Below, piece after piece: positions 2,115-35,130 of a DNA stretch of 35,130 nucleotides; position 1 is the stretch's first letter, and each line of letters starts with the position of its first letter. Source of the DNA: Elusimicrobiota bacterium (GTDB lineage Bacteria; Elusimicrobiota; Elusimicrobia; Elusimicrobiales; UBA9959); the NCBI GenBank assembly GCA_009773155.1, contig WOVA01000025.1, forward strand, positions 1 to 35,130, in the 5' to 3' direction. The translations under genes and the position numbers were made by a program. Below the pieces are notes generated by a model, which worked only from the letters and a program-made list of their open reading frames with translations, was not told the origin of the DNA and ran no database searches.

Positions 2115-3323
2115 TCAGGGAACAGCCGGCTTCTCCAGCCGGAAGATATCCAGTACCGTCCCGTCCTTGCCATATATGAGCAGGGTGAACAGCCGTCCGC
2201 TTACGCGGCCCTCGGCGAAATGGTGGCCGGCGATGAATTTCTCCGACCACTCGACCGTCTCTTCGCGCGGCGCGGCCGGCGGCCGTCCCCCGCCCCCGAG
2301 CGTTATATAGGACAGGCCTCCCTCGGTCACGGCGTCCTCCACCAGCGGCGAGGTGCGCTCATAGGCGCGCTCATGGCCCTGGAAGACCGCGTCCACCTGG
2401 TGCTTCTCCAACAGCGGGCGCAGCGTCTCGTTCAGCTCCTCGATTATTCCGTATTCACCGCTCGAATAGAGCGGGTGATGCAGGATGACGAATTTCCAGT
2501 CCTTATTGGTGCGCGTTAGGACATACTCGAGCCACTTATACTGCTTGGAGCCTCTGGTAAGCGCCGGGGCGGCCGCCGCGCCGCCGAAGGCGTTGGAGTC
2601 CAGCGCGATGAAGCGCGCTTTGCCTATGTCGAAATAATAATAGTGCGGCGGGAGGCCGTTGAGCGGAACGCTCTGGAAAGGAGAATAGTTCTCGCGCAGG
2701 AAGTTCTTCCCCTCGGAAGTCCCGGCCTCGGGGCCGTATTCCGACGAGCCGGGCACGGGGAAGAAAGGCGCCCGGCGGAGCAGCCCCGCGTAAGGGCCGA
2801 AATACTGCGCGTCGGCGTCCGCGTCCAGGCCGCCCTCGACCAGCCCGCCGGTATGTATGACGAAGTCCGGGGTCAGGCGGTCCATCTGAGCGGCCAGCGC
2901 CGCCTGTTGTACTGGGACACCATGCGGCATGGTGTCCCTCGCTGATGCCGAGCCGGATTCGCCGAAGGCGAGGAAGGTGAAGGAGTCTTTCTCCGCCGGC
3001 GGGAAGGTCTTGAACCGGCCTTCCGCGGCTTTGTAGACGGCCTGCCCCGTGGGTTCGGGCAGGAAAATGCGGTAGCAGTAGGTCGTATCGGCCAGCAGTC
3101 CGAAGAGCGGAAAGCGGTGCTCCTGGGTGGCGTAGTTCAGCGTGGTGACGCGTTCGCAGTCGGGCTCTATCCCGTAGCGCAGCCAGGCCACCGTGCTGAC
3201 GTCGGCGCGGAAACGCACCGTCATGGAGTCATGCGCCCCCGCCGCCAGGTAGGGGCCGCGGACTATCTGGGCGGCCCCGGCCGGCAGGGAGAGCACCAGA
3301 AGGAGGAGCGCCCCCAGCCTCAT
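2115..3323 (-). CDS. Exported purple-acid-phosphatase-like metallophosphoesterase, degenerate active site
   Basis: The protein has 402 residues and a Sec signal peptide (about residues 1-18), so it should act outside the cytoplasm. A fibronectin-III-like domain (about 20-108) precedes a calcineurin-like phosphoesterase fold, as in purple acid phosphatases. The metal-ligand motifs are eroded. GDxG reads G-E-S-G at 121-124, GDL reads G-G-L at 159-161, GNHE reads G-S-S-E at 192-195, and GHxH reads G-H-E-R at 316-319. Only the HH at 282-283 looks intact. With this many ligands lost it is probably a pseudoenzyme or binding protein, though this is inference. Its start overlaps the stop of adenine deaminase by 4 bases (ATGA), so the two are translationally coupled. 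It is the last gene of its operon. Confidence 0.8.
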   Translation of the reverse strand: MRLGALLLLVLSLPAGAAQIVRGPYLAAGAHDSMTVRFRADVSTVAWLRYGIEPDCERVTTLNYATQEHRFPLFGLLADTTYCYRIFLPEPTGQAVYKAAEGRFKTFPPAEKDSFTFLAFGESGSASARDTMPHGVPVQQAALAAQMDRLTPDFVIHTGGLVEGGLDADADAQYFGPYAGLLRRAPFFPVPGSSEYGPEAGTSEGKNFLRENYSPFQSVPLNGLPPHYYYFDIGKARFIALDSNAFGGAAAAPALTRGSKQYKWLEYVLTRTNKDWKFVILHHPLYSSGEYGIIEELNETLRPLLEKHQVDAVFQGHERAYERTSPLVEDAVTEGGLSYITLGGGGRPPAAPREETVEWSEKFIAGHHFAEGRVSGRLFTLLIYGKDGTVLDIFRLEKPAVP

Positions 3324-5056
3324 TTCTTCCCGCAGAAGAGGTCGGTGACGGTGAACTTCACCGCGTCGATGACGCCCCTGTCGGTTATGCGGAGCTCGGG
3401 TATCGGCGGCAGCGTTAGAAAAGCCATCGCCATGAACGGGTCTGAGAGTTTTGAGCCCAGCATGCGCGCCGCCTCGGAGAGGCGCTTGAGCTTCTCCTTG
3501 ACGTATTCGGAGCTGCGGTCGGACATCAGTCCCGCCACCGGCAGCGGCAGGGCTTCGAGGACCTGGCCGTTGAGCGCGGCCACTATGCCGCCCTGCATCT
3601 TGACCACCTGCACGGCCGCGGTGTACATGTCGCCGTCGTGCGTGCCGATGACGACGATATTATGGGAGTCGTGGGAGACCGACGACGCTATCGCGCCTTT
3701 CTTGAGGCCGAAGCCGCGGACCAGCCCCTTGGCGACGCGGCCCGAGGCCATGTGCCGCTCGATGACGGCGATCTTGAGTATGTCGCGGTCGGTATCGGCC
3801 GAGACGAAGCCGCCGTCCTGCTTGACCGGCTCGATGGTCTGCTTTGTCACTATCTGGTCGGGGATCACATTGATCACCTTGGCGTATTTCCCCTCCGCCC
3901 TGAGGGCGAAGTCCTCGTGCTCTATCCACTTCACGTTGACGGTGCCGCGCACCTTGCCCTCGTATTGCTTTATGACGCCGGGCTCGATGCGGCGGTTGAC
4001 GGCGACCTGGCGGCCTTTTTTGAAGACGCGGGAGATATTGAGCTTCTTAAGATCGTCCACTACTATCAGGTCGGCCTGGTAGCCGGGGGCGATGGCGCCG
4101 AGGTGCTTGAGGCCGAAATACTCGGCGGTGTTTATCGTCGCCATCTGTATGGCGCGTATCGGGTCCACTCCCAGCTTTATGGCGGTGCGGACCAGGTAGT
4201 CGATGTGACCCTGCTTCTCTATGTCCTCGAGGTGGCGGTCGTCGGTGACCAGTATGAACTTGCGGGAATTCTCGGAATTGACCAGCGGCAGCAGCCCTTT
4301 GAGGTTCTTGGCCGCCGTGCCCTCGCGTATCATGATGTACATGCCGGCGCGCAGCTTCTCGCGGGCCTCGGCCACGTCGGTGCACTCGTGGTCGCTCTTG
4401 ATGCCCGCCGAGACATAGGCGTAGAGCTGCTTGTCTTTGAGCATCGGCGCGTGGCCGTCTATGACCTTATTGCCGGCTATGGCTATCTTCTCCAGCACGC
4501 CCCTGTCCTGGTAGATGACGCCGGGGTAGTTCATCATCTCGCCTATGCCCAGCACGCGCTCGTCGCCCAGCAGGAGCGAGAGGTCGTGGGCGTCCAGCTC
4601 GGCGCCGGCGGTCTCCAGGTGCGTGGCCGGCACGCAGGACGGCAGCATGACGTAAACGCCCAGCACGGCGTTCTGGCTGGACGAGAGCATATACTTGATG
4701 CCGTCCAGGCCCAGCACATTGGCTATCTCGTGCGGGTCGATGACGACGGAGGTGGTGCCGCAGGGCAGCACCGTGCGGGCGAACTCGGGTATTTTCACCA
4801 TCGAGCTCTCGATATGGACGTGCCCGTCGATGAAGCCGGGAGCGACGTACGACCCCTTGAGGTCTATGGTCTTCTTGGCGGGGTAGGAACCGAAGCCGAT
4901 TACGCGGCCGTTGTGCACGGCGACATGGGTCTTGTGTATGTCGCCGGAGAAGGTGTTGACGACCCGCGCGTTCTTGAGCAGCAGGTCCACGCGCTTGGCG
5001 CCGCCGGAAAGCTCGATGGTGGCCTTAAGTTCTTTTACGGAATTTTCGATGTCCAT
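3320..5056 (-). CDS. ade: Adenine deaminase
   Basis: This enzyme deaminates adenine to hypoxanthine and ammonia in purine salvage (EC 3.5.4.2). The 578-residue length is normal for the bacterial Ade family of amidohydrolases. The metal-binding HxH lies in GFIDGHVHIESSM near residue 79. It is followed by CGTTSVVIDPHEIANVLG, then the HAP and SDHEC segments and the conserved C-terminal deaminase domain. The start is supported by AGGAG 7 bases upstream of ATG 5056. It lies 56 bases after the TauE/SafE gene and overlaps the next gene by 4 bases. The YfiH-type protein three genes upstream acts on adenosine in studied homologues, so the operon has a purine-salvage theme. Confidence 0.93.
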   Translation of the reverse strand: MDIENSVKELKATIELSGGAKRVDLLLKNARVVNTFSGDIHKTHVAVHNGRVIGFGSYPAKKTIDLKGSYVAPGFIDGHVHIESSMVKIPEFARTVLPCGTTSVVIDPHEIANVLGLDGIKYMLSSSQNAVLGVYVMLPSCVPATHLETAGAELDAHDLSLLLGDERVLGIGEMMNYPGVIYQDRGVLEKIAIAGNKVIDGHAPMLKDKQLYAYVSAGIKSDHECTDVAEAREKLRAGMYIMIREGTAAKNLKGLLPLVNSENSRKFILVTDDRHLEDIEKQGHIDYLVRTAIKLGVDPIRAIQMATINTAEYFGLKHLGAIAPGYQADLIVVDDLKKLNISRVFKKGRQVAVNRRIEPGVIKQYEGKVRGTVNVKWIEHEDFALRAEGKYAKVINVIPDQIVTKQTIEPVKQDGGFVSADTDRDILKIAVIERHMASGRVAKGLVRGFGLKKGAIASSVSHDSHNIVVIGTHDGDMYTAAVQVVKMQGGIVAALNGQVLEALPLPVAGLMSDRSSEYVKEKLKRLSEAARMLGSKLSDPFMAMAFLTLPPIPELRITDRGVIDAVKFTVTDLFCGKK

Positions 5057-5112
5057 GGTCCTTCTCCTGTCGCTTGTCTTGGTTAAATTTTACTTATTTT
5101 GACCGGTCTTTA

Positions 5113-5892
5113 TCACCTGAGCATGTCCCAGGCCACCTTGGCCAGCAGGCCGAAGGAGACGATTATCAGCATTGGGCGTATTATCCACGCCCCCCGCTTC
5201 AGCGCCACATGGGCGCCCAGCCAGTTGCCGGCCATGCCGAAAAGCCCCATGACCAGGCCCAGTTTAATGTCCACCCGGGCCAGATACAGGAAAGCTGCCA
5301 GCGAAAAAACGTTGGAGGTCAGGTTGAGCAGCTTGCTGAGCGCGGTGGCGCGCAGCAGGTCGTAGCCGCAGACCCTGGCGAAGGACAGCGCCAGGAAAGT
5401 GCCGGTGCCGGGGCCCAGCAGCCCGTCGTAGAAACTTATCACCGAGGAGATGAGGCCCGAGCCGAACCAGATCCGCTCCGGGGACTTATGCGCGCTGGTG
5501 TCGCGCAGGCCGAAATCCTTGCGGGCGACCAGGAACAGCGCGGCCGGCGGCAGGAAGATTATCAGCAGGTAGCGCACGGTCTCCGGCGGCACCGCCGAGA
5601 TGAGCGCCGCCCCCGCCGCCGAGGAGACCGCCGCCAGCGCGATCACGAAGAACAGGTAAAGCGGCGGGAAGGCCGCCGAGCGGAGGAACCGGGCCGCGGC
5701 GACCAGCGTGCCCATGCTGGAGGAGAGCTTATTGGTGCCCAGCAGCAGGTTGAGCGGCAGGCCGGCGGAAAGGTAAGCCGGGAGCGTGATAAGGCCGCCT
5801 CCCCCCGCCATCGAATCGATGAACCCGGCCAGCGCCACCAGCGCGGCCAGCAGGGCGAAAGTCTCCGGCGTCAGATTCTCAAAGTATGGCAT
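5113..5892 (-). CDS. TauE/SafE-family membrane permease
   Basis: The protein has 259 residues and about eight hydrophobic helices. A GFIDSMAGGGGLITLP segment near residue 21 is the hallmark of the TauE/SafE (formerly DUF81) family of putative anion or organosulfonate exporters. A related glycine-rich segment, YDGLLGPGTGTF, starts the second half. The start ATG at 5892 overlaps the stop of the upstream YfiH-like gene by one base (TAATG), which fixes the start. The open frame continues upstream to 6054, but that part is only a shadow of the neighbouring gene. The substrate cannot be read from the sequence; the purine-salvage neighbours do not settle it. Confidence 0.87.
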   Translation of the reverse strand: MPYFENLTPETFALLAALVALAGFIDSMAGGGGLITLPAYLSAGLPLNLLLGTNKLSSSMGTLVAAARFLRSAAFPPLYLFFVIALAAVSSAAGAALISAVPPETVRYLLIIFLPPAALFLVARKDFGLRDTSAHKSPERIWFGSGLISSVISFYDGLLGPGTGTFLALSFARVCGYDLLRATALSKLLNLTSNVFSLAAFLYLARVDIKLGLVMGLFGMAGNWLGAHVALKRGAWIIRPMLIIVSFGLLAKVAWDMLR

Positions 5893-6677
5893 TATCTCAG
5901 CATCGCGGCCAGGGCGAAGCGGCCTGTGACGCCCCTGTCGCGCCTCCACGAGAACAGCCGCTCGTCTTCCCGTGTGCACAGCGGCGAAAATTCGGAATTG
6001 GTTATACCGAGCTCCAGCAGCTGCTCGCGCAGCAGGGCGCGCAGGTCGAAACACTGCCCGCCGTCCTGCCGGCGCAACAGGCGCGCGGCCTTCTCCGGGC
6101 CGAAAAGGCCCTTGAGCCTCTCCGTGAAATCGCTCCCTACGGGATAATGCGCCGCGCAGATGCAGGGCCCCACGCCCGCGATAATATCCCCGGGCCGGCT
6201 GCCGTAAAGCAGCGCCATGCGCTCGAAAGCCGCGCGGAAGATGTTCTGCGCCGCGCCCCGCCAGCCCGCGTGCGTCACGCCGAGGGCGGCGTTGCGCCTG
6301 TCATAGAAGACCGCGGTGGCGCAGTCCGCGGAGAAGGCGATCAAAGGAGTATTCTTAAGGCGGGTAACCAGGCCGTCGAGGTGGGGCTGGAAGACGGGTT
6401 CGCCGGGCGGGCCGAAGGGCCAGTCCTCGCGCACCTCCGCCACATTGGCGGTATGCTCCTGCCTCATCGCGGCCAGTCTCTCCGCCGGCATCCCGGCGGC
6501 CGCCAGGAAGCGGCGCAGGTTCTCAGCCGCGTTCTCCGGCTCGTCGCCGGTCGCCGCGCCGACATTTAGCGAAGCGTAGGGGCCGGAGCTGACGCCGCCG
6601 GCGCGCGTGGAGACCGCGTGGGCCAGTCCGGCCTCGCCGTCCAGGTTGCCGAACCTGAGCAGTTCCGGTACGCCCAT
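5892..6677 (-). CDS. YfiH/PgeF-type laccase-domain protein (purine nucleoside phosphorylase/adenosine deaminase-like)
   Basis: This belongs to the Cu-oxidase_4 (DUF152) family, originally called polyphenol oxidase. Studied homologues are zinc enzymes acting on purine nucleosides (adenosine phosphorylation and deamination). Visible signatures are RAGGVSSGPYASLNVG near the start, SADCATAVFYD with the conserved Cys, GVTHAGWRGAA with the conserved His, and GVGPCICAAHYPVG. Length (about 261) is normal. ATG 6677 lies just after the stop of the upstream gene. A TTG at 6683 in the same frame overlaps that stop and has a better-spaced GGAG, so either could be used. The stop overlaps the next start by one base. 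Confidence 0.88.
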   Translation of the reverse strand: MGVPELLRFGNLDGEAGLAHAVSTRAGGVSSGPYASLNVGAATGDEPENAAENLRRFLAAAGMPAERLAAMRQEHTANVAEVREDWPFGPPGEPVFQPHLDGLVTRLKNTPLIAFSADCATAVFYDRRNAALGVTHAGWRGAAQNIFRAAFERMALLYGSRPGDIIAGVGPCICAAHYPVGSDFTERLKGLFGPEKAARLLRRQDGGQCFDLRALLREQLLELGITNSEFSPLCTREDERLFSWRRDRGVTGRFALAAMLR

Positions 6678-6679
6678 CG

Positions 6680-7579
6680 TCAATTCTTCAGCTCCAGCGT
6701 GTAGGATTTGACTATTTTAACGGGAAAATAGGATTCCTTGGCCTTTTTGAGGCCCGCCAGGCCCAGGTCGTTCTCCTTGTCTATGAACGAATAGGCGGCG
6801 GGCACGGCGCGGGCCGCCTCGCGGTCGAGGAACTGGTACAGACCCTTGAAAGAGATGTCGGCCTTCTCGAAATTGAGCGCCCAGGTCCCGTCGCTCAGCC
6901 GCGAGCCGAAGGCGAAGCCGGCCAGCCGGCCGGAGAGCTCCACCGCGACGCCGGACATCTCCAACTCCCTGAAATGCGCCAGCGCGTTGGCGATGGCCTT
7001 GCGCTCGCATTTCTTGATGTCCATGGCCTCGCCGCGCGACTTCTCCCAGTGGTCGAAGAGGTCGAGACAGTTCTTCAGGCAGGCTCCTTTCATCGCGCCG
7101 ACGGCGGCGGAAGCCCCGCAAGCTTTTTCGAACTGGGAGACGAGGTTGCGCTTCTTGGCGTAGCGGCGTCCGTCCAGCGCGGCCAGCGCGGTCCGCTCGT
7201 AGATGTAGTCGTGGTAGCCGTCCTCTTCCTTCACGGTGAAAAATTTCTCCGCTTCGGCCCGGCCGACGGCGTCCAGCCAGTCCTGCGGCACATAGCGGAA
7301 CTCCCGGTAGCCCAGCCGGGCGGCCCCGTCGGCCAGTTCCGCGGGCGATGGCATGCGGAAGGGGCGGCAGACCGGCAGCAGGAGCCGGCGGCGGCCGCCC
7401 TCTCCCTGCTCGTGCTCGGCGAACCAGGCGCGGTCCCCGTCCTCGAAATAGAAGGCGTCGTGAACGCAGCCGGCCCAGATTATCATAGAGGCCGGCGAAT
7501 AAGGGCAGAGCTGGTAGCCCTGCCCGGCGAAATAGGGTTTCAGCCTGGCATAATCGCCCGGCCCCAGCGGTTTAAACAT
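6680..7579 (-). CDS. DUF2156 (phosphatidylglycerol lysyltransferase C-domain-like) protein
   Basis: A 299-residue soluble protein with the tandem GNAT-like fold of the LPG_synthase_C/DUF2156 family. The pattern DYIYERTALAALDGRRYAKK followed by RN near residues 123-145 matches the family's conserved YxxLSGRKYxxKRN segment. Near the C-terminus FIDKENDLGLAGLKKAKESY matches the family's final NEDLGIxGLRxAKxSY-type motif. There is no membrane flippase domain, unlike MprF, so this is a stand-alone acyltransferase-like protein whose acceptor is unknown. Its start overlaps the stop of the GNAT gene by 8 bases, so the two are probably co-translated. Confidence 0.85.
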   Translation of the reverse strand: MFKPLGPGDYARLKPYFAGQGYQLCPYSPASMIIWAGCVHDAFYFEDGDRAWFAEHEQGEGGRRRLLLPVCRPFRMPSPAELADGAARLGYREFRYVPQDWLDAVGRAEAEKFFTVKEEDGYHDYIYERTALAALDGRRYAKKRNLVSQFEKACGASAAVGAMKGACLKNCLDLFDHWEKSRGEAMDIKKCERKAIANALAHFRELEMSGVAVELSGRLAGFAFGSRLSDGTWALNFEKADISFKGLYQFLDREAARAVPAAYSFIDKENDLGLAGLKKAKESYFPVKIVKSYTLELKN

Positions 7580-7991
7580 TGGTGCCGCCTTTCATCATGG
7601 CGCGCGCGCCGCGCGGGGTGACGAAACCGAGCCGGCTGTAGAAAGGCGAGGAGTTATTGGAGGAAATAAGGCCCACCCAGCCCACGCCGAGGGACTTGAG
7701 CCGCCGGAGCATGCGCCGGACCAGGCCGGAGCCTATATCGCGGCCGCGGAATTCCCGGGCGACGGTTATATCGTGCAGATAGGCCTCGGCCGAGTGGGCG
7801 TCTATGGCCCGCCCCATGCCCGCCAGGCGCCCGTCCTCCTCCGCCACTATGAAGCAGAGGCTGCGCTCGACGGTGCGGCGCAGCCCGGCCCGCCTGTCCG
7901 AGGGCTTCCACCAGCCCTGAGCCCGGTACAGGGCCTCGATCCGGAGGAGGTCGGAGGCTGAAGGTTTCTTTATGAATCTATAGCGGATCAT
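7572..7991 (-). CDS. GNAT-family N-acetyltransferase
   Basis: A 139-residue protein with a complete GNAT fold. The segment YLHDITVAREFRGRDIGSGL (about residues 71-90) contains beta-4 and the acetyl-CoA pyrophosphate-binding R/Q-x-x-G-x-G/A motif (here R-G-R-D-I-G-S-G). The end of the domain, NNSSPFYSRLGFV, is the usual FYxxxGF segment. It is the first gene of the minus-strand operon that runs down to 2115. The acceptor substrate is unknown. A C-rich/G-rich inverted repeat and a second hairpin lie upstream, so the operon promoter must be close to 7991-8030. Confidence 0.87.
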   Translation of the reverse strand: MIRYRFIKKPSASDLLRIEALYRAQGWWKPSDRRAGLRRTVERSLCFIVAEEDGRLAGMGRAIDAHSAEAYLHDITVAREFRGRDIGSGLVRRMLRRLKSLGVGWVGLISSNNSSPFYSRLGFVTPRGARAMMKGGTNV

Positions 7992-8032
7992 CGGGAAAGA
8001 AATAGTAACTTTTCCCCCGTCGGGGGGTCAAT

Positions 8033-8066
8033 AAAAAGAACCGCCCGCCGCAGCGGGCAGTTCTTC
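8033..8066. terminator. Terminator of the M14 peptidase gene
   Basis: An A-run is followed by an imperfect stem in which agaac pairs with gttct and gcccgc with gcgggc, around a cgca loop, then a short T-run. In the minus direction it lies just after the carboxypeptidase stop at 8082. A separate cccccg/cgggggg inverted repeat at about 8014-8026 adds to the insulation before the next operon. Confidence 0.65.
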
Positions 8067-8081
8067 GGGAGCGCCGCCGGC

Positions 8082-9419
8082 TTATTCGGCCGCGGCCTTG
8101 CGCGGATCGCCGGTGTTGCGCAGGAGGTAGAGCGCCGCCTGCACATTATCGCGCACCGACTTCTCTATGACGCCGGCGCCGGGGTAGAAAGTACCGCCGC
8201 CGCCCCAGCCGCCCTTGGGCGTAAGCTCGAAGGTGAAGGCGAAGATGCCGGCCTCGGCGTAGGCCCAGTCGCAGGAGTCGCCGGTGGCGGCGTAGAGGTC
8301 GCTGGATTTCTGGGCGGTGTAGCCGGTCAGCCGCGCCATTCCCTGGGCAATATTCTTAAAGACTTTCAGATCGTTCTGGTCGGGGATATCCTCGTACTTG
8401 CCGCCCCAGGGATAAAGTATCAGCTCGCCGTAGGTGTGGTAGCTGATCATGGTCTTGAGGTTGGGGCGGGCTTTCACGAAATCGCGCACTGCGCGGCTCT
8501 CGGGCTCGGAGAAAGCCGCGGGCCCGCAGTAGGTGTCGGCCCAGGGCGAGTTGGAGGCGCCCGCCTGGCACCACCAGGAATCGTAGTTGCGGTTGAGGTC
8601 CACGCCCTGCGACCCGGAGTTCACGGACATATTCTTGCGCCACCATTTGTACTTGCCGGTGCTGATATCGTACTCGGCGCCGTCGGGGTTGATCATCGGC
8701 TGTATGTATATGTCCAGGGTGGTTATGAACTTCTTCACCTCGGCGTTATTGCGGTTCTCCAGCAGCCACACCGCGAAAAGCAGCGGGACTTCCACGCTGA
8801 GATGCTCGCGCGCGTGATGGGCGCCCTGGAAAACGGCGCCGGGCTTGGAAGAGGGCTTCGTCCCCTTGGCGGAAGAATTTATCCGCAGCGTCCAGATCTC
8901 GCGGTTCTCCACCGTCTTGCCGATGGAGAACAAGGAAACGATGTCGGAGTTGGCTGTCTCCAGCGCCTTAAGGCGGTCGTACATTTCCCGGTAGTTATGG
9001 TAGGCGGCGTCCTGCGACGGAAAATCCTTGAAAGCGGAGACGGCGAACTGCGAGAGCGGCATCCGGGAAATAACGTTCACGCTCTTGGTCTCGAAGGCCG
9101 GCAGCGAGTCGCGATGGATAATACCGGAGACGGCGGTCGGGGTCACTTCCTCTATTGAAAGGCCCAGCTCCAGCAGGCGGGTGCGCTCCTCTTTGGTGGC
9201 GGCGGCGACCGTTATCCAGAAGCGGGGATCGTTCTCGAGAGCCTTCTCTATGGCCGGCACGGGCTCTTCGACGTTCGGAACGGGCGGCGCTTCATAAGCC
9301 GCGGACATCGACCGGAGCAGCTGGTTAAAAGAAAGCGAGGATTTTTCGGGCGCTTCGGAAGCGAAAGCGTTGAGCGAGAGTGAGGCAAAAAAAGTTAAGG
9401 ACAGCAGCAGCCTGATCAT
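8082..9419 (-). CDS. Exported M14-family zinc carboxypeptidase
   Basis: The protein has 445 residues and a clear signal peptide (about 1-20). A propeptide-like region is followed by a peptidase M14 domain from about residue 137. Zinc ligands are visible as H202 and E205 in GAHHAREH and H328 in ISYHTYGE. The substrate-binding DLNRNY lies at 274-279, and the catalytic glutamate is E398 in FTFEL. All catalytic residues are therefore present, so it should be an active secreted or periplasmic carboxypeptidase; specificity (A/B or D-glutamyl type) is not evident. It is monocistronic, with its own terminator downstream and a 16-bp palindrome 35 bases upstream of the start. Confidence 0.92.
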   Translation of the reverse strand: MIRLLLSLTFFASLSLNAFASEAPEKSSLSFNQLLRSMSAAYEAPPVPNVEEPVPAIEKALENDPRFWITVAAATKEERTRLLELGLSIEEVTPTAVSGIIHRDSLPAFETKSVNVISRMPLSQFAVSAFKDFPSQDAAYHNYREMYDRLKALETANSDIVSLFSIGKTVENREIWTLRINSSAKGTKPSSKPGAVFQGAHHAREHLSVEVPLLFAVWLLENRNNAEVKKFITTLDIYIQPMINPDGAEYDISTGKYKWWRKNMSVNSGSQGVDLNRNYDSWWCQAGASNSPWADTYCGPAAFSEPESRAVRDFVKARPNLKTMISYHTYGELILYPWGGKYEDIPDQNDLKVFKNIAQGMARLTGYTAQKSSDLYAATGDSCDWAYAEAGIFAFTFELTPKGGWGGGGTFYPGAGVIEKSVRDNVQAALYLLRNTGDPRKAAAE

Positions 9420-28619: not shown

Positions 28620-28829
28620 TTAGGGGCCGCTGAAAAAGTCCGGCCGTTCTTCCAGGGCGAACCTGTCGCCGGGCACGGCGCGCGCTATTTTTCTGAGCGG
28701 GTCACGGCTAAATGAGAACCGGCAGACCACGATATCGCCTCTCTGCACCTCATGCCTGTCGTAATAACCGTAAAGGGGTACCCCTTTCGTGGTATTATAC
28801 GCCGAGGATATTGCGCCAGCTGAAATCAT
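28620..28829 (-). pseudogene. Truncated S26 signal-peptidase-like fragment
   Basis: The frame from ATG 28829 codes for 69 residues. The part VQRGDIVVCRFSFSRDPL followed by RKIARAVPGDRFALEE looks like the central strand region of S26/TraF-type serine peptidases (substrate groove and RVxAxPGD segment). No catalytic serine segment and no membrane anchor are present, and the chain ends soon after the PGD motif. It is therefore probably a decayed fragment. A perfect 16-bp palindrome (AAAGGGGTACCCCTTT, 28772-28787) lies inside it. Nothing codes convincingly between 28830 and 28944. Confidence 0.45.
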
Positions 28830-28944
28830 AGCATGGGGACAAAAACCATATAACCGCGACGGCCCCTTATGAACCGCCTGCTGGTTCGGCGATGGTCCCC
28901 GCAGTTTTGTGGAACCAGCCCGGTGAATTAAGTTGTGTGTCACC

Positions 28945-30156
28945 TTAATCGTTTTGAGTCCGCGTAAAGCGTGTCCGGGCAGATATCCTGTTCGTGAGGC
29001 CAGCCTCATCTGGGCCTGCGGCGTCCCTGCTCCTTCCGCTTATCCATTCGCGGAACCAGATATCCGAGAACACCGTAACGCCATCCTCCTTCTCCAGTAT
29101 GCCTTTAGCTATCAAAAGAGCCTCCGATTTTTGCACGGAAGACGCCGACCCCAGGCGGTAGGTATTGATAAACACCATTGAGAACATATCGGTTCCTGAG
29201 GCCATGGCCATGGCTTGCAGCAGTTTCCTCTGTGTAAGCGCCAACGAATCCCATATTGAAAGGAACATAGGAGACAGCCCCTGCACGATCCGGCCGACAG
29301 CTTCGGCTACCGCGGAGCGCGGCACTTTTTTTATATCAGCGCAGCCGCTCCATATTTCATGACATAAATGCAGCGTATAATACGGGATGGCATGGGAGAC
29401 CTTTATTATCTCATCCATAGTCCCGGCGTCGATGGTTTTATCCGTAGCCCCGAACTTGCGGGAAATGAAAGAACTGAGTTCACCCGAAGGGATCTTTCCC
29501 AGGAAAAGAACTTTTCCCATTTTATAGAAAGGCTTGTTTTTATTCAGCACCATGTCGGCCATTATATGTTGCTTTGAGCCGGCAAACAGGTAGCCTACAT
29601 CTTTCTGACGCTGAAAAACGGATCGCATCGCCTTTTCAAGAGCTTCGCCTCCCACATTTCTTATTTCCTGAAATTCATCAAAGAACACGGCAAACTTCTT
29701 TTTTCTTCTCTCTGCGGCTTTTTGCGGAATCTCCAGGAGATCTTTGATAAGCAGGGAAAGTTCCGGCTTTTTCGGGGCCGCCTCTATCCCCACCGATATT
29801 TCTCCTTCGGCGCTTATAGTGACGCTCGGCCGCAGCGAAGGGATAACCTCTCTGATGAAACCGACGATGCTTTCGGTTTTTGTTTCCGTCGCCCTCGCAA
29901 TAGCTCTGGCATAATGCGCGGCGAATTGCTCCACCGTGGAAACATCATACATATCTATATAAGCGGTTATAACGCCGCGTTCTTTGAGCGCAGCTAGCGC
30001 GTTGAACGCCAGCGACGTTTTCCCATACCGCCTTGGTGAAATAAGGAACACCCGGGCGCCGCTGTCAAGCTCGGCCACCAGCTCCTTAAGTTCTGTTGTT
30101 CTGTCGGTGAAGTCCCCTCCTGTCGCGACCTGACCGTAATAAAAAGGGTTAAGCAT
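28945..30156 (-). CDS. AAA ATPase (archaeal-type ATPase_2/MNS-STAND-like)
   Basis: A 403-residue protein. NPFYYGQVATGGDFTDRTTE at the start and the P-loop SPRRYGKTSL near residue 36 are typical of the ATPase_2 family, common in archaea and accessory bacterial regions. Walker B is FAVFFDEFQEI near 165, followed by FAGSKQHIM. The C-terminal part carries a winged-helix-like region (LTQRKLLQAMAMASGTDMFS). GGAGG 7 bases upstream fixes the ATG at 30156. Members often pair with nucleases or mobile elements and their roles are mostly unknown. It lies immediately downstream of the DGR reverse transcriptase in the same direction, with its own AT-rich promoter region. Confidence 0.82.
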   Translation of the reverse strand: MLNPFYYGQVATGGDFTDRTTELKELVAELDSGARVFLISPRRYGKTSLAFNALAALKERGVITAYIDMYDVSTVEQFAAHYARAIARATETKTESIVGFIREVIPSLRPSVTISAEGEISVGIEAAPKKPELSLLIKDLLEIPQKAAERRKKKFAVFFDEFQEIRNVGGEALEKAMRSVFQRQKDVGYLFAGSKQHIMADMVLNKNKPFYKMGKVLFLGKIPSGELSSFISRKFGATDKTIDAGTMDEIIKVSHAIPYYTLHLCHEIWSGCADIKKVPRSAVAEAVGRIVQGLSPMFLSIWDSLALTQRKLLQAMAMASGTDMFSMVFINTYRLGSASSVQKSEALLIAKGILEKEDGVTVFSDIWFREWISGRSRDAAGPDEAGLTNRISARTRFTRTQND

Positions 30157-30182
30157 GCTATCGCCTCCGCATCCTATATGAA

Positions 30183-30215
30183 TTATACTTTGTGGTATTA
30201 TACTATAAAGTATAA
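30183..30215 (-). promoter_or_regulatory. Operator-like inverted repeat in the ATPase promoter
   Basis: ttatacttt (30183-30191) and aaagtataa (30207-30215) are perfect 9-bp inverted arms 15 bases apart in an AT-rich block. Several TATAAT-like boxes overlap them on the minus strand. The site is 27-59 bases upstream of the ATPase start codon. Confidence 0.5.
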
Positions 30216-30301
30216 GTTGCGGACAGAATACAAAAACAAGCACAGCACCGGCAGTATATATTTCAATATCCAGGCCATAATTGCCCCCATCGCTTTCAAG
30301 T

Positions 30302-30868
30302 TCAGAACACTTCCCGCTCCAGCAGTTCCCGCGTAAGCCTGGCGGCGTCGGCGTGCGACGTATAGGCGCAGAAGCTCTGCACGGACTGGCCGATATCGGG
30401 GAAGCCAATCCGGCCCTGTCGGAACAGCGCGCGCAATTTCCGGTTGCGCAGACGGAAGCGGATAATATTGCGGCGGCGCACCCGCACGCGTTCCGGGAAT
30501 ACTTTATAGCCCACCCAGTCGATGCCGCAACTTACGGGCGAGACCGTGCGCTTTTTTGGGTGGACGCGCAGTCTCAGTTTTTCCGCCAGGAACACCTCTA
30601 TCCGGTAAAGAACGGCCCATAATTCCTTTTTGTCCGCGCCGAAGAGCAGAAAATCGTCCATGTAACGCAGATACGGCTTCCACCGCAATTGCTGCTTCAC
30701 AAAATGATCCAGCTCGCCCAGGTAGACATTGGAGAACAACTGCGAAGTGAGGTTGCCTATGGGAATGCCGGTCGGCCGCTGGAGCGCGAACAGATCGTCG
30801 CCGGGGAAATACGCGCGGAAGCGGACGTCTTCCGACGACGCCAGTATCGCGGCTATAAGCGCCAGCAC
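30302..30868 (-). CDS. DGR reverse transcriptase, C-terminal part
   Basis: The frame encodes the palm, thumb and C-terminal part of a diversity-generating-retroelement reverse transcriptase. The DGR-specific nucleotide-pocket motif IPIGNLTSQLFSNVYLGELD is followed by HFVKQQL, the catalytic YMDDF, DWVGYKVFP, and the RSVQS-like tail QSVQSFCAYTSHAD. The first codon shown is a GTG (30868). The frame is open a little further upstream, where GRHIADKRVLALIAAIL matches the usual segment after motif A. Motif A itself, with the first catalytic aspartate, is absent, so this product cannot be a complete polymerase. The N-terminal part lies in another frame just upstream. Confidence 0.85.
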   Translation of the reverse strand: MLALIAAILASSEDVRFRAYFPGDDLFALQRPTGIPIGNLTSQLFSNVYLGELDHFVKQQLRWKPYLRYMDDFLLFGADKKELWAVLYRIEVFLAEKLRLRVHPKKRTVSPVSCGIDWVGYKVFPERVRVRRRNIIRFRLRNRKLRALFRQGRIGFPDIGQSVQSFCAYTSHADAARLTRELLEREVF

Positions 30869-30879
30869 CCGTTTGTCGG

Positions 30880-31062
30880 CTATGTGCCGGCCCAGAACGG
30901 CGCGGCCTTCACCTCCCGCTGTTTGGGATCGCGCACGGTGAATTCCCGGTAAGCGCCGTGCCTGTAGGTGCCGGCCAGCAGTTCCTCCTGGAGCTTTAAG
31001 ATCTCACGCTCCCGGCCGTAGGAAAACCCGGCCCGGTTCGGCCTTTCGCCCGCGCGGGCGGG
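30880..31062 (-). pseudogene. DGR reverse transcriptase, N-terminal fragment (frame-shifted)
   Basis: An open frame of 60 codons between two stops reads EREILKLQEELLAGTYRHGA then YREFTVRDPKQREVKAAPF. This is the conserved N-terminal region of DGR reverse transcriptases, where such a segment is normally followed by RDRVVHHAL. Here the match breaks off after AAPF near 30895, and the homology resumes in a different frame with VLGRHIADKRVL. The missing part is an estimated 75-85 residues, covering the GKGTH region and motif A. The real N-terminus before ARAGERPNRAGF is also not evident. Confidence 0.75.
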
Positions 31063-31195
31063 CTACCGGGCCTCGCCGGGGTACTTCGTTTTTCTCACCC
31101 GGCCCCGCGCCGGATGAAAGGAGCAGGCCTGCCGTAGGGAGGGTTGCGCGGGGCGCGCCTCCGTGAAGGCGCGCCATCTGGCCATATACCCCTCT

Positions 31196-31312
31196 GCCGC
31201 AGCGGAAGCCGACGTTGTCGTTCCAGTTGGACGGGCCGTTGTTCGCGTTGAAGGCGAACACGCCCGCGTTGGCGCCATTGTCCCAGTTGCCACCGCGGAT
31301 CACCGCTTTCTT
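31196..31312 (-). repeat. DGR template repeat (TR)
   Basis: This non-coding copy of the variable region lies directly after the stop of avd and before the reverse transcriptase, the usual TR position. Its core (31197-31298) aligns without gaps to 32341-32442, an offset of 1144. There are 14 differences, all at adenines of the minus-strand template, and none at the other 82 positions. The codons affected are mostly AAC/AAT, the design that gives the widest amino-acid choice on adenine mutagenesis. The alignment continues more loosely to 31312, where adenine changes still dominate. Confidence 0.95.
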
Positions 31313-31318
31313 CCGGGC

Positions 31319-31684
31319 CTACCCCTTGGGCAGCGCCGCAACTCCGGCGCCGCCGGATTTTTTATTCCAGCCGCCCAGCAGGCGGCCGAGCTCGTCCAGC
31401 CTCCTGGACCCGAACTCGTATTGTTTAAGGCTCATAAAGCGCAGTTCAAAGCCCAGGCGCACCCAGACCCTCGTCTTCTCCAGCGCCAGATCCGCCCGCC
31501 CGAGGGCCGGAGCCTTGTCGCGGGCATTGTTGGCCTCAATGACGGCTGAAAGCAGGTCCAGCGCCGCGTTCTCCGTCCTGGCTGCCAGCACGAACTTCTC
31601 GGCTTTCGGGTATTTGCCGGTAAGAACATGAACCCATTTCAAAAAATCATACGCTTTCTGGAATATTATCAGGTCTTTAAGCAT
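31319..31684 (-). CDS. avd: DGR accessory variability determinant (Avd), four-helix-bundle protein
   Basis: A 121-residue all-helical protein related to the S23/four-helix-bundle family. It begins LKDLIIFQKAYDFLKWVHVL and contains FPKxEKFxLAxR-like YPKAEKFVLAARTENAAL, then LRFMSLKQYEFGSRRLDELG followed by RLLGGW. These are typical of bacterial Avd, which forms a basic pentamer that binds the DGR reverse transcriptase and the template RNA. It overlaps the end of the MutS-like gene by 16 bases. Its stop lies about 7 bases before the TR, so the same transcript would carry avd, TR and the reverse transcriptase. Confidence 0.92.
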   Translation of the reverse strand: MLKDLIIFQKAYDFLKWVHVLTGKYPKAEKFVLAARTENAALDLLSAVIEANNARDKAPALGRADLALEKTRVWVRLGFELRFMSLKQYEFGSRRLDELGRLLGGWNKKSGGAGVAALPKG

Positions 31685-31989
31685 CGGATCACCTCGCCGG
31701 CCTCGCGCCGGATCTCCCCGTCTTCCAGCCTTACCTGGCTACAAACTGCGACTGAAAAACCGGCCCTGACAAGTTTGCCTATATACTTATCCAGTCCGCT
31801 TTTCGGGAATCCGCAATAGATCAAAGGATTATCCGCTTCCCCACTTATAAGCAGTTTCAGCCCAAGCTGTTCCGCGACTTTTTTGGCATCGTCAAGCATT
31901 ATTCTGTAAAATATTCCCACCTGGAAAAGCAGAATATCGCCTGGATATTTTTCCTTCATTTGTTTATATTCTTCCGTAACGCTGTCCAT
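31669..31989 (-). CDS. MutS N-terminal-domain-like protein (DGR-associated)
   Basis: A stand-alone 106-residue version of the MutS mismatch-recognition domain I. EEYKQMKEKYPGDILLFQVG, IFYRIMLDDAKKVAEQLGL and YIGKLVRAGFSVAVCSQV align with the start of MutS (QYLxxKxxYPDxLLFFRxGDFYELF...YIxKLVxxGYKVAICEQ). The mismatch-wedge phenylalanine is kept in FYR, but the following glutamate of F-x-E is an arginine. There is no clamp, lever or ATPase. MutS-like small proteins have been noted before as DGR accessory genes. ATG 31989 was chosen because MutS similarity begins right after it; the frame is open to 32031. Confidence 0.8.
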   Translation of the reverse strand: MDSVTEEYKQMKEKYPGDILLFQVGIFYRIMLDDAKKVAEQLGLKLLISGEADNPLIYCGFPKSGLDKYIGKLVRAGFSVAVCSQVRLEDGEIRREAGEVIRCLKT

Positions 31990-32169
31990 AAAAACACCGC
32001 CTTTTAAGAAAGATCGTAAGGGAGCGCGCAATCCCAGGAACCGGGCGCTGCCGCTTGACGCGTACCGATTTGCGAATTTTTAGAATTGGCCGCCTGAGCA
32101 CGCCGCGTTTGTAGCGGCACAAACGCACGTTTGACAAGGGCATAAAAAAATGCCCAGAAAATAATATCA

Positions 32170-32204
<35 letters not shown>

Positions 32205-32253
32205 GTTCGGTTTTAAAGAATGTATAAGTCTCATATTCTGCCCCTGAATTTTC

Positions 32254-32270
32254 GCCCGCCTTTGGCGGGC
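32254..32270 (-). other. Hairpin downstream of the variable region
   Basis: gcccgcc and ggcgggc form a 7-bp stem around a 3-base loop, about 70 bases past the VR on the minus strand. DGRs often have a short cruciform just after the VR that helps retrohoming. This one is farther away than usual and could instead be a weak terminator (no T-run). Confidence 0.4.
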
Positions 32271-32327
32271 ATATAAACTGCGCCCGCATCAGCAACCGAG
32301 AGATTCCAGATGTTCAGATTTCAGATT

Positions 32328-34838
32328 TCAACGGCGTCTACCGCAGCGGAAGCCGACGAAGCCGGCCCAGACGGACGGGCCGTAGTACGCGTCGAAGGCG
32401 AACACGCCCGCGTTGGCGCCATCGCCCCAGAAGCCACCGCGGCCCACCGCCGGAACCTGGCCAGCTCTCCAACCGGCAGGGGCGTTATAATTTGTGTATG
32501 CGTTACCGCCTATATTCCACATACCGTCATTGTTGTAGTCAGTCCCGCTACCATCAACTTCTACCATTGCTCCAGCTCCGCCTGAAGCTCCGGATCCTGC
32601 TGTTCCCCAGTCTGCCACCCACTCCCATACGCTCCCTATCATGTTCTCCGCGCCAAAGCTTGACAGGCAGCTTGTGCCCTGCCCTGTCTGCATGGACTGG
32701 GTTCCTGACGTATTACATTGCGGCCCGGTATCCTGAGAAATGGCGCCGGGGTCCGGCGTACCGGCCGCAGCCATTTGCCAGATGGCATTGGGCAGAAGCT
32801 CCTTGCCGGAGTTACCGCAGGCGATATTGGCCTGGAACCAGGTAAGCGAGGTGGACGGTTTGACACCTATTATACTGCGCGCATAGATATAGGTTGTCCC
32901 GGCGGCGCAGTTCTGGGCATTATCATTACAGGGATAATTGTCCGTTCCGTTTATTCCGTACTGCGTGCCGCCTGTGGCGGTTGACCAGACGGAGGTTTCG
33001 TATTTATCCACACACCAGGCCCCAACCGGCACCATACTGTCGTTGGCGTCGGCTGGGTTGACGCAGCCGCCCTGTATCCACTGCGTCGCCCGTATATTAC
33101 CCGCCACATCCAGCTTAGCCCCCGGCCCCGTTGTCCCGATGCCGACGTTGCCGCCGTTTGCAATACTAAATACCTCGCCTCCTGGACTGCCAGTGCCATA
33201 CTTATGTATGCCAAATCTACCGTCACCATAGGAGTACAAGTGTGTTTCAATACCACCGCCCGGCGCCATTCTGAAATCAGAAAGACCATCTCCTCTGTTT
33301 CCCAGTAAAAAACTGCCATCAGTCACATGAAGTTTCACCCCCGGATTTGTTATCCCGATGCCGACATTGCCGTTGGCTAAAACGGTCATTGTCCCGCCGA
33401 TTACCTGAAACACAGGCGTTGTCCCGGAAAGACCGGTTCCTGAAACAGACATGCTCGAGGTAACTATGGCGTTGCCCGATACATGTAGTTTATGCGTCGG
33501 CCCAGCGGTCCCGATGCCGACGTTGCCGCTGTCTTTGATCATCATCTTCTCGCTCCATGAGGTCCCGTTGAACCCCCAGTAGCTCATGTCGCCGGTTGTG
33601 CCGTTGAAGTCCAAACTGCTCCGGAACGTACTGCCGACATCGAATCCCAGCGAGGCCCATGTGGGGTTGCTCTGTCGCGCGCCAATGAGCAGGCTTCGAT
33701 CGGCTAGGTTCGCGGTCCCCACGGGACTACCAACGATGGCATTACCCAGCACCTGCAATTTTCCCACAGGCCCCGTGGTCCCGATGCCGACATTGCCCGT
33801 TGTTGAAACTACCATACTATATGCCGTGCTTGTTCCTACTGCTAAGTTGAACGCTTGAGTATTTGACCCGCGCACATCTAACCTTGCCCCCGGCCCCGTT
33901 GTCCCGATGCCGACGTTGCCGGAGGTGTTCCAGATGCCGGAACCGGGGAAGTTGGTATTGGCGCTGAACGTATGCGCCCCGGTCCACGTCGGCGTTATCG
34001 CCTTCGACAGCGTGAAAGCGCCGGCATTGGACAGCGCGCCCTCGCCGGACATAGCCACAGCGGCCGCAAGGTTTGAACTGTTCCCCACCCAGATATTGGC
34101 GCTTGTCAAAGCCGACCCGACAGGCGAAGCGCCGGCTATGCCGGTAAGCGCCGAACCGTCGCCGAAGAACTTGGTCGCTGACGCGAAGCCGACTATATAA
34201 ACGTTGGTGGATACGCGCACACCGCCGCCCAGCGCGGCGGAAGTCTCGGGCGAGATGACGCGGCTTGAGTTTTCAAGAATCAGGGCGGCGTTCGTTCCGC
34301 GCACCGTTATTGAACCGTCCAGCACGTCAAATTTTGAACCAGGCCCCGTCGTCCCGATGCCGACATTGCCGGTGTTTTTGATAATCAAACGTGCCTGAGG
34401 CGCATCGCTGCCCTCCTGGGTAGTAGTAAACTCAAGCCTAGTGGGTAAATTAGTAGTTCCCGGTGTTCCATCCATAACTGCATTAATACCGGCTACGCGA
34501 CCCCTAAAAGCGGTGCCGTCATGAGCGCGCCAACTTAAAGTGCCTAGCCACGTCGTGCTACTGACTGCGGTGGGAGCAGAGGCAGTCCCTCGAGCCCTGT
34601 GGATATCAATGTCAAACTTAGATTCATCAGCGTCGGCGTAACTATAGGCATGCATGTCTCGGTTAGATCCTGAAATAGTAAGAATTGCAGTAGGCGCCGT
34701 CGTCCCGATGCCGACGTTGCCGTTTGCATCAATTCTCGTCCATTCAGAAGAGCCAGTGTTGTCAGTGATTCTCAAACCACCCGCATTTAATCCGCGAGCC
34801 TGGAAACCGCTCCCCGATGTGTTATTGGTCAAACGCAT
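32328..34838 (-). CDS. DGR target protein: tail-fibre-like repeats plus FGE/C-type-lectin variable domain
   Basis: About 836 residues from the first ATG (34838); the frame is open to 34928. Seven units with the motif GNVGIGTTxPxxKLxV are spread over residues 25-600, interleaved with GDGSALTGI-type segments, as in phage tail fibres and bacterial surface fibres. The C-terminal domain (about 605-836) is an FGE-sulfatase/C-type-lectin fold: VPVGAWCVDKYETSVW, FGAENMIGSVWEWVADW and the final GFRCGR. The VR occupies the last 40 residues. Ten residues differ from those encoded by the TR, all Asn or Asp codons there. No signal peptide is seen, probably because the 5' end is missing: a foreign frame ends at 34912. 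Confidence 0.85.
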   Translation of the reverse strand: MRLTNNTSGSGFQARGLNAGGLRITDNTGSSEWTRIDANGNVGIGTTAPTAILTISGSNRDMHAYSYADADESKFDIDIHRARGTASAPTAVSSTTWLGTLSWRAHDGTAFRGRVAGINAVMDGTPGTTNLPTRLEFTTTQEGSDAPQARLIIKNTGNVGIGTTGPGSKFDVLDGSITVRGTNAALILENSSRVISPETSAALGGGVRVSTNVYIVGFASATKFFGDGSALTGIAGASPVGSALTSANIWVGNSSNLAAAVAMSGEGALSNAGAFTLSKAITPTWTGAHTFSANTNFPGSGIWNTSGNVGIGTTGPGARLDVRGSNTQAFNLAVGTSTAYSMVVSTTGNVGIGTTGPVGKLQVLGNAIVGSPVGTANLADRSLLIGARQSNPTWASLGFDVGSTFRSSLDFNGTTGDMSYWGFNGTSWSEKMMIKDSGNVGIGTAGPTHKLHVSGNAIVTSSMSVSGTGLSGTTPVFQVIGGTMTVLANGNVGIGITNPGVKLHVTDGSFLLGNRGDGLSDFRMAPGGGIETHLYSYGDGRFGIHKYGTGSPGGEVFSIANGGNVGIGTTGPGAKLDVAGNIRATQWIQGGCVNPADANDSMVPVGAWCVDKYETSVWSTATGGTQYGINGTDNYPCNDNAQNCAAGTTYIYARSIIGVKPSTSLTWFQANIACGNSGKELLPNAIWQMAAAGTPDPGAISQDTGPQCNTSGTQSMQTGQGTSCLSSFGAENMIGSVWEWVADWGTAGSGASGGAGAMVEVDGSGTDYNNDGMWNIGGNAYTNYNAPAGWRAGQVPAVGRGGFWGDGANAGVFAFDAYYGPSVWAGFVGFRCGRRR
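32337..32456 (-). repeat. DGR variable region (VR)
   Basis: This is the 3' end of the target gene, ending 9 bases before the far edge of its stop codon. The core 32341-32442 matches the TR at 31197-31298 except for 14 substitutions, each at a template adenine. Changed codons give Asn to Phe, Asp, Tyr, Val or Ala and Asp to Gly. The last 18 bases of the core (ccgcagcggaagccgacg on the plus strand) are invariant and GC-rich, as expected for the initiation-of-mutagenic-homology region. Just beyond it, one C/T difference distinguishes the two copies. Confidence 0.95.
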
Positions 34839-34911
34839 GAAAGGTTCGCTTGTGTTGTCACGATTCCAGACCTCCTGACATAGCCCCCGTCTAATTTGTC
34901 CGCTTTTTCGT

Positions 34912-35130
34912 TCAAACAGCAGCGGCAACCCGATAGCGCAGCCTTAATTTTGAACCCGGAAAAACCGCGGCCTGGGCGGTAAGTTCCTCACACAAGGCCG
35001 CCACCGCCCTGGTGCGGTGCGCCGAACTCAGCGGCGCCAGCACAACTTCCAGCTCCGTATCCGTCACCAGCAGGTCGGCCGCAGAAGCGAGCGCGGCGTG
35101 TATAAGCGTGCGGCCCTCGTCACCGGCGCG
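34912..35130 (-). CDS. Unidentified protein, C-terminal 72 residues (possible transposase end)
   Basis: The frame enters from the right edge and stops at 34912. It reads DLLVTDTELEVVLAPLSSAH then RTRAVAALCEELTAQAAVFP and GSKLRLRYRVAAAV. The alternating strand-helix-strand end and the position, directly abutting a 5'-truncated gene, would fit the end of an insertion-sequence transposase. No DDE or HUH motif is visible in the part present. The 35 bases after its stop (about 34877-34911) would then be the element's terminus. The identity is uncertain. Confidence 0.45.
   Translation of the reverse strand, partial: RAGDEGRTLIHAALASAADLLVTDTELEVVLAPLSSAHRTRAVAALCEELTAQAAVFPGSKLRLRYRVAAAV

What the first reader, a model, noticed from the sequence alone, without database searches (positions are those of the whole stretch)
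31196..32456. Diversity-generating retroelement with exclusively adenine-directed TR/VR differences
The 102-bp cores of TR (31197-31298) and VR (32341-32442) differ at 14 positions. All 14 are adenines on the TR coding strand (14 of 20 adenines changed), while none of the 82 other positions differs. Ten Asn/Asp codons are diversified in a C-terminal FGE/C-type-lectin-like domain. Avd, TR and a DGR-type reverse transcriptase follow in canonical order. The protein that is varied carries seven tail-fibre-like GNVGIG repeats, so a surface or phage-like adhesin with programmed binding diversity is likely.
Basis: partly seen in the sequence, partly recalled or inferred. Interest (0 to 1): 0.9.

Follow-up and report, generated by a model that had tools for sequence, protein, structure and literature searches.

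The report
Recently inactivated diversity-generating retroelement in Elusimicrobiota
The genome holds a real 'mutate-my-own-adhesin' cassette, but in this assembly its reverse transcriptase has lost essential parts and the adhesin gene is cut in two by a transposon, so the striking pattern is a fresh fossil of past activity and not a working system.

Summary
TR (31197-31298) and VR (32341-32442) differ at 14 of 20 template adenines and at 0 of 82 other positions (chance about 6.5e-13). Avd, a MutS-I-like accessory (MSL) and an FGE/C-type-lectin target are present, so this was a genuine DGR. (1) Against the intact 350-aa reverse transcriptase of a same-genus genome, the window's RT lacks 125 bp (start region to codon 34) and 220 bp (codons 79-152, including the catalytic motif ADISKFF, plus a frameshift). 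Both deletions lie at 6-bp direct repeats, and the genome holds no other RVT_1 match. (2) The target gene is split by an insertion sequence: 34867-35130 is the IS end, the N-terminal half lies on another contig, and joining the flanks minus one 5-bp duplication (GAATC) gives one 1136-residue open frame with a signal peptide. Death looks recent: A-only TR/VR differences, and 2 nonsynonymous against 11 synonymous RT changes on this lineage. A relative (G026) shows a later stage: RT scar, no TR or Avd, two intact VR-bearing adhesins. Such inactivated DGRs were described in 2012, so this is a new member of a known kind.

The parts
34867..35130 (-). 3' end of an insertion sequence (Transposase_29 gene end plus 17-bp terminal repeat at 34867-34883); the contig breaks inside it
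   Evidence: 96-100% identical to G000:C90:2057-2229, which carries a Transposase_29 gene (PF21804, 3.2e-67); TIR found again at the start of C86
34862..34866 (-). 5-bp target-site duplication GAATC of that IS
   Evidence: same 5 bp at the IS boundary on contig C86; empty site restores one open frame
32328..34866 (-). C-terminal part of the split DGR target gene (GNVGIG repeats, FGE/C-type-lectin domain, VR); the N-terminal part is on contig G000:C86
   Evidence: intact orthologue with the same N-terminus in L201:6009-9215
32337..32450 (-). Variable repeat (102-nt core 32341-32442)
32300..32331 (-). Phased short repeat (GAAATCTGAAATCTGAACATCTGG) directly 3' of the VR
32254..32270 (-). GC hairpin GCCCGCC-AAA-GGCGGGC 3' of the VR (possible DGR target hairpin or terminator)
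31669..31989 (-). MSL accessory gene (MutS domain I alone), apparently intact
   Evidence: PF01624 3e-20; conserved next to avd in L041 and L043
31319..31684 (-). avd, apparently intact
   Evidence: NF033474 4.9e-31, above its cut-off; PF22296 3.9e-23
31192..31306 (-). Template repeat (102-nt core 31197-31298)
   Evidence: all 21 adenines kept in the TR of L041 while 11 of 84 other sites differ
31021..31039 (-). Junction of the 125-bp deletion (from 23 bp before the ATG to codon 34 of the RT; microhomology GCCGGG)
   Evidence: alignment with the intact RT gene of L008
30889..30906 (-). Junction of the 220-bp deletion (RT codons 79-152 incl. ADISKFF; frameshift; microhomology CCGTTC)
   Evidence: motif A placed by alignment to the BPP-1 DGR RT, PDB 8ub7
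30302..31032 (-). Reverse transcriptase pseudogene (two fragments; keeps IGNLTSQ and YMDD, lacks start and motif A)

Best explanation
This was a chromosomal DGR of an Elusimicrobiota bacterium. Its RT, with Avd and probably MSL, copied the TR transcript with errors at adenines and the cDNA overwrote the VR at the 3' end of a secreted adhesin-like gene. In this genome it has recently been switched off. Two short deletions at 6-bp direct repeats removed the RT start and the catalytic motif-A region, and an IS jumped into the target gene and cut off its signal peptide and N-terminal part. The VR is a frozen product of the last homing events. Shown here by sequence: the TR/VR pattern, the two RT deletions, the IS with its duplication, and the lack of another RVT_1 in the assembly. 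Inferred: that the cells no longer diversify, and that loss was recent. The order of the two lesions is unknown.
For: TR/VR A-only differences. Only one RVT_1 hit in a genome rated 100% complete, covering profile positions 117-204 of 205; a search with the intact relative's RT finds no copy of the deleted 94-162 segment anywhere in G000. Intact 350-aa RT in same-genus L008, 88.5% identical DNA, with two clean deletions in the window at 6-bp microhomologies. Motif A of the BPP-1 DGR RT (LKSDFSKFF, PDB 8ub7) aligns to the deleted LKADISKFF. IS in the target: TIR, GAATC duplication on both contigs, in-frame 1136-residue empty site, and an intact orthologue with the same N-terminus in L201. Recency: no non-A change at 82 core sites; 2 N and 11 S polarised RT substitutions on the window branch against a 3:1 neutral expectation in favour of N (binomial p 1.1e-5), with 9 N and 16 S on the L008 branch. 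Of the eight family loci with Avd above cut-off, the window's is the only one whose RT match lacks large segments.
Against: This is one metagenome-type assembly and no reads could be examined: the deletions could belong to a minority strain, or an intact RT could sit on an unbinned phage, plasmid or strain variant. The purifying pattern in the RT remnant is also what one would see if most cells still carry an intact RT. Avd, MSL and TR remain apparently intact.
Confidence: 0.84

Rival explanations
1. The DGR is active in the population: the RT deletions and the IS belong to one strain or are assembly errors, or an RT acts in trans.
For: The TR/VR pair is pristine at non-A sites and the RT remnant shows purifying selection up to very recently. 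Avd, MSL and TR look intact. Assemblies of mixed strains can fix a minority allele.
Against: Two separate deletions with exact 6-bp microhomology in one gene, plus a separate IS with matching TIRs and duplication in the target gene, are normal mutations and not a usual assembly error. No other RVT_1 is in the genome.
Confidence: 0.13
2. The RT remnant still works in some way: the 188-aa C-terminal ORF with SQ and YMDD motifs, with another protein supplying the N-terminal part.
For: The C-terminal ORF is open from a GTG and keeps IGNLTSQ and YMDD.
Against: Motif A with its catalytic Asp and the finger region are gone and no matching protein piece exists in the genome.
Confidence: 0.02
3. The TR/VR pair is a chance or ordinary duplication unrelated to a DGR.
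For: Short direct repeats do occur elsewhere in the window.
Against: A-only mismatches (6.5e-13), Avd, MSL, DGR-type RT remnant, and the same layout in L041, L042 and L043.
Confidence: 0.01

Closest known systems
Bordetella phage BPP-1 DGR (mtd/avd/TR/brt)
   Same: Target-avd-TR-RT order on one strand, A-only TR/VR differences, Avd, RT related to bRT (intact orthologue hits 8ub7 at 3.1e-57)
   Different: Elusimicrobiota genome contig, FGE-like secreted GNVGIG protein instead of Mtd, extra MSL gene, broken RT and target
Inactivated DGRs with intact TR/VR (Schillinger et al. 2012, PMC3521204, Figure 4)
   Same: RT truncated by mutation while TR/VR still shows only A changes, read by the authors as very recent inactivation
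   Different: Here the RT is lost through two internal deletions and the target gene is also split by an IS
DGRs with MSL (MutS-like, PF01624) accessory (PMC10053308)
   Same: Stand-alone MutS domain I next to avd
   Different: Nothing found beyond the taxon; the role of MSL is unknown
Treponema TvpA (PDB 2y3c) and Thermus TaqVP (PDB 5vf4)
   Same: C-terminal FGE/C-type-lectin-like VR domain (profile E 1e-4 and 1.6e-4)
   Different: Long N-terminal GNVGIG repeat region in the protein studied here

Membership tests
Diversity-generating retroelement | TR/VR pair differing almost only at TR adenines | tested here: met
   14/14 core mismatches at A, 0/82 elsewhere
Diversity-generating retroelement | RT of the DGR clade, (I/V/L)GxxxSQ and YxDD motifs | tested here: met
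   Remnant has IGNLTSQ and YMDD; its intact orthologue hits bRT (3.1e-57) and PHROG 1423 (4.1e-120)
Diversity-generating retroelement | Complete, potentially functional RT gene | tested here: not met
   125-bp and 220-bp deletions, no start, motif A missing, frameshift; no second RVT_1 in the genome. It is therefore filed as an inactivated DGR.
Diversity-generating retroelement | Avd or another accessory gene | tested here: met
   NF033474 above cut-off; MSL PF01624
Diversity-generating retroelement | Target gene with VR at its 3' end in a C-type-lectin-type fold | tested here: met
   FGE-like domain by profile; the fold model was too poor to place the variable residues
Diversity-generating retroelement | Intact target gene | tested here: not met
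   Split by an IS with GAATC duplication
Diversity-generating retroelement | IMH/IMH* and a hairpin 3' of the VR | tested here: inconclusive
   C/T difference at 31196/32340 and a 7-bp hairpin with AAA loop about 70 nt from the VR; published hairpins of phage-related DGRs lie 4-34 bp away (PMC3240598)
Diversity-generating retroelement | Observed VR diversification in a population | not testable with these tools
   No reads available
Insertion sequence with a Transposase_29 gene | Transposase, terminal inverted repeats, target-site duplication | tested here: met
   PF21804 3.2e-67; 17-bp TIR; 5-bp GAATC

The most novel reading that the evidence does not exclude
Elusimicrobiota lineages may repeatedly shed the DGR machinery and keep already diversified adhesins as fixed genes: intact DGRs in G016 and G022, a just-broken one here, and G026, where TR, avd and MSL are gone, the RT is a scar of about 40 codons, and two full-length VR-bearing adhesin-like genes remain open. 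If so, some VR-type proteins in genomes without an RT are frozen DGR products.
Probability: 0.3. Interest if true: 0.45.

Novelty: new member of a known kind. Interest (0 to 1): 0.32.

Why it matters
It shows that a textbook A-only TR/VR pair with Avd and RT-like sequence nearby is not evidence of a working DGR: RT integrity and target integrity have to be checked. The locus and its relatives give a decay series (intact, just broken, machinery gone but adhesins kept) in which the fate of diversified genes after loss of a DGR can be studied.

Tried and rejected
RT in trans: no other RVT_1 in the genome and no copy of the deleted RT segment. AlphaFold model of the target's C-terminal domain (8-sequence alignment): mean pLDDT 48.5, so exposure of the variable residues could not be judged; Foldseek hits were FGE, EgtB and TaqVP but not significant. 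A broken RT in G049 (L048) was suspected from a reported in-frame TAG and dropped, since the alignment runs through as a shorter but continuous RT. A VR for the TR of G022 (L041) was sought by DNA and not found. The third TR/VR-like stretch, on C25, is a decayed FGE fragment and not a second working target. G001's TR could not be seen because its 3374-bp contig ends about 117 bp upstream of the RT start.

Full report
Observation. On the minus strand the order is target gene with VR (32328-34866), MSL (31669-31989), avd (31319-31684), TR (31192-31306) and RT sequence (30302-31032). The chance of this is about 6.5e-13. Families: Avd (NF033474, 4.9e-31; PF22296), MutS domain I alone (PF01624, 3e-20), FGE-sulfatase domain in the target (PF03781, 4e-5). 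A profile of the target domain hits sulfatase modifying factor 2 (1e-7) and the DGR variable proteins TvpA (1e-4) and TaqVP (1.6e-4) (the name TaqVP for 5vf4 is).

The RT is broken. In the window the longest RT ORF has 188 aa and matches RVT_1 only from profile position 117; it is the only RVT_1 in the genome. A same-genus genome, G001 (its contig is identical to L049, Elusimicrobia bacterium UBA11179), has an intact 350-aa RT that is 88.5% identical in DNA. Against it the window lacks 125 bp, from 23 bp before the ATG to codon 34, and 220 bp, codons 79-152, which shifts the frame. Each deletion has a 6-bp direct repeat at its ends (GCCGGG; CCGTTC). The second removes LKADISKFF, which aligns with LKSDFSKFF (motif A) of the BPP-1 DGR RT, PDB 8ub7. 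A search with the intact RT finds no other copy of the missing segment in the genome.

The target gene is split. The last 264 bases of the window (34867-35130) are the end of an IS whose Transposase_29 gene is on contig C90. The first stage's ORF start at 34928 lies inside it. Contig C86 begins with the other IS end, and beyond it, on the minus strand, lies the N-terminal part of a GNVGIG-type gene. The two flanks share the 5-bp duplication GAATC and the 17-bp terminal repeat. The empty site reads as one frame of 1136 residues with a signal-peptide-like start, MLQVTAPSARRIPGRSGPCVRAALLAVLSAFIWPAPAHC. G026 carries an intact orthologue with the same start.

How recent. The 82 non-adenine sites of the TR/VR core are identical. 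RT substitutions polarised with three outgroups give 2 nonsynonymous and 11 synonymous on the window branch, 9 and 16 on the G001 branch; under neutrality about 3:1 in favour of nonsynonymous is expected (p 1.1e-5). So the gene was under selection until close to the present. All 21 TR adenines are shared with the TR of G022 while 11 of 84 other sites differ.

Relatives. G016 and G022 have intact RT, avd and TR, with MSL in G022 (L041) and in one of the two G016 loci (L043, where it matches in two pieces). L043 has an adjacent VR with A-only differences over 76 nt; L042 has an adjacent VR with a few non-A differences; G022 has no VR nearby and none was found by DNA search. Of eight family loci with Avd above cut-off, only the window's has an RT missing large segments. 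G026 (L201) is a later stage: RT scar of about 40 codons, no TR, avd or MSL by search, two open full-length targets of 1013 and 1024 residues ending in VRs that differ from the window TR at 14 and 13 of 21 adenines and 8 and 9 of 84 other sites.

What it is. It works like, and descends from, a standard DGR; as assembled it fails two functional requirements (complete RT, intact target), so I file it as an inactivated DGR. Precedent: the DiGReF survey reported inactivated RTs with intact A-only TR/VR pairs and concluded that inactivation must have been very recent (PMC3521204). MSL is a known DGR accessory (PMC10053308). Roux et al. classed DGRs as active or inactive from read-level variants (PMC8144416); that test is the one to run here.

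Limits. No reads were available, so strain mixture, a minority allele in the assembly or an RT on an unbinned element remain possible. The order of the two lesions is unknown. The fold model of the target domain was too weak to judge whether the variable residues are exposed.

Side lead. Directly 3' of the VR, here and in many unrelated DGRs including phage contigs, lies a short phased repeat of the type AATCTGAAATCTG, often followed by a GC hairpin. A 7-12-nt periodicity score averages z 1.44 after VRs (n=62), -0.12 after TRs (n=60; p 2e-8) and 0.26 after other gene ends in the same loci (n=170). In further viral contigs fetched afterwards it averages 0.95 against 0.00 (n=48, p 4e-4). The discovery set was scored after the pattern had been seen in it, many loci are related to each other, and in the papers I read only the hairpin is described (PMC3240598, PMC4372165). 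It is a lead, not a result.

Noticed in passing
32300-32331; also L042, L043, L048, L201, L178, L179, L184, L188 and others: Short phased repeat (AATCTG type, 7-12-nt period) directly 3' of VRs and not of TRs, often before a GC hairpin; enriched in a discovery set and in a second viral set. Possibly part of the homing target site.
   Followed up: partly
28789-30203: An AAA/ATPase_2 gene (28945-30156) sits inside a Peptidase_S26-like gene that is intact in L008 and L201 (remnants at 28638-28773 and 30234-30271). It is flanked by the direct repeat GTGGTATTATAC (28789, 30192), and similar TGGTATTATAC...AAAGTATAA motifs lie near homologous ATPase genes in L150 and L154: perhaps a mobile gene unit.
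   Followed up: partly
32170-32204; L177 (C86) near 1500-1573; L041 about 8630-8710: Tetranucleotide tracts (GGCT type in the window and C86, CCTG type in L041) upstream of the MSL gene or of the target gene.
   Followed up: no
L004 (G000:C25) 5683-6088: A second, decayed FGE fragment with a VR-like stretch (73% identical to the TR, one-base gap); the contig ends in what looks like a group II intron end, judged by eye only.
   Followed up: no
L041 (G022:C17) 5469-8321: Intact RT, TR, avd and MSL with no target gene next to them (TolA/ExbD-type genes upstream) and no VR found in the genome by DNA search: a DGR whose target is remote or lost.
   Followed up: partly
L201 (G026:C43) 2827-9215: Two paralogous full-length VR-bearing targets kept without TR, avd or a complete RT.
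   Followed up: partly
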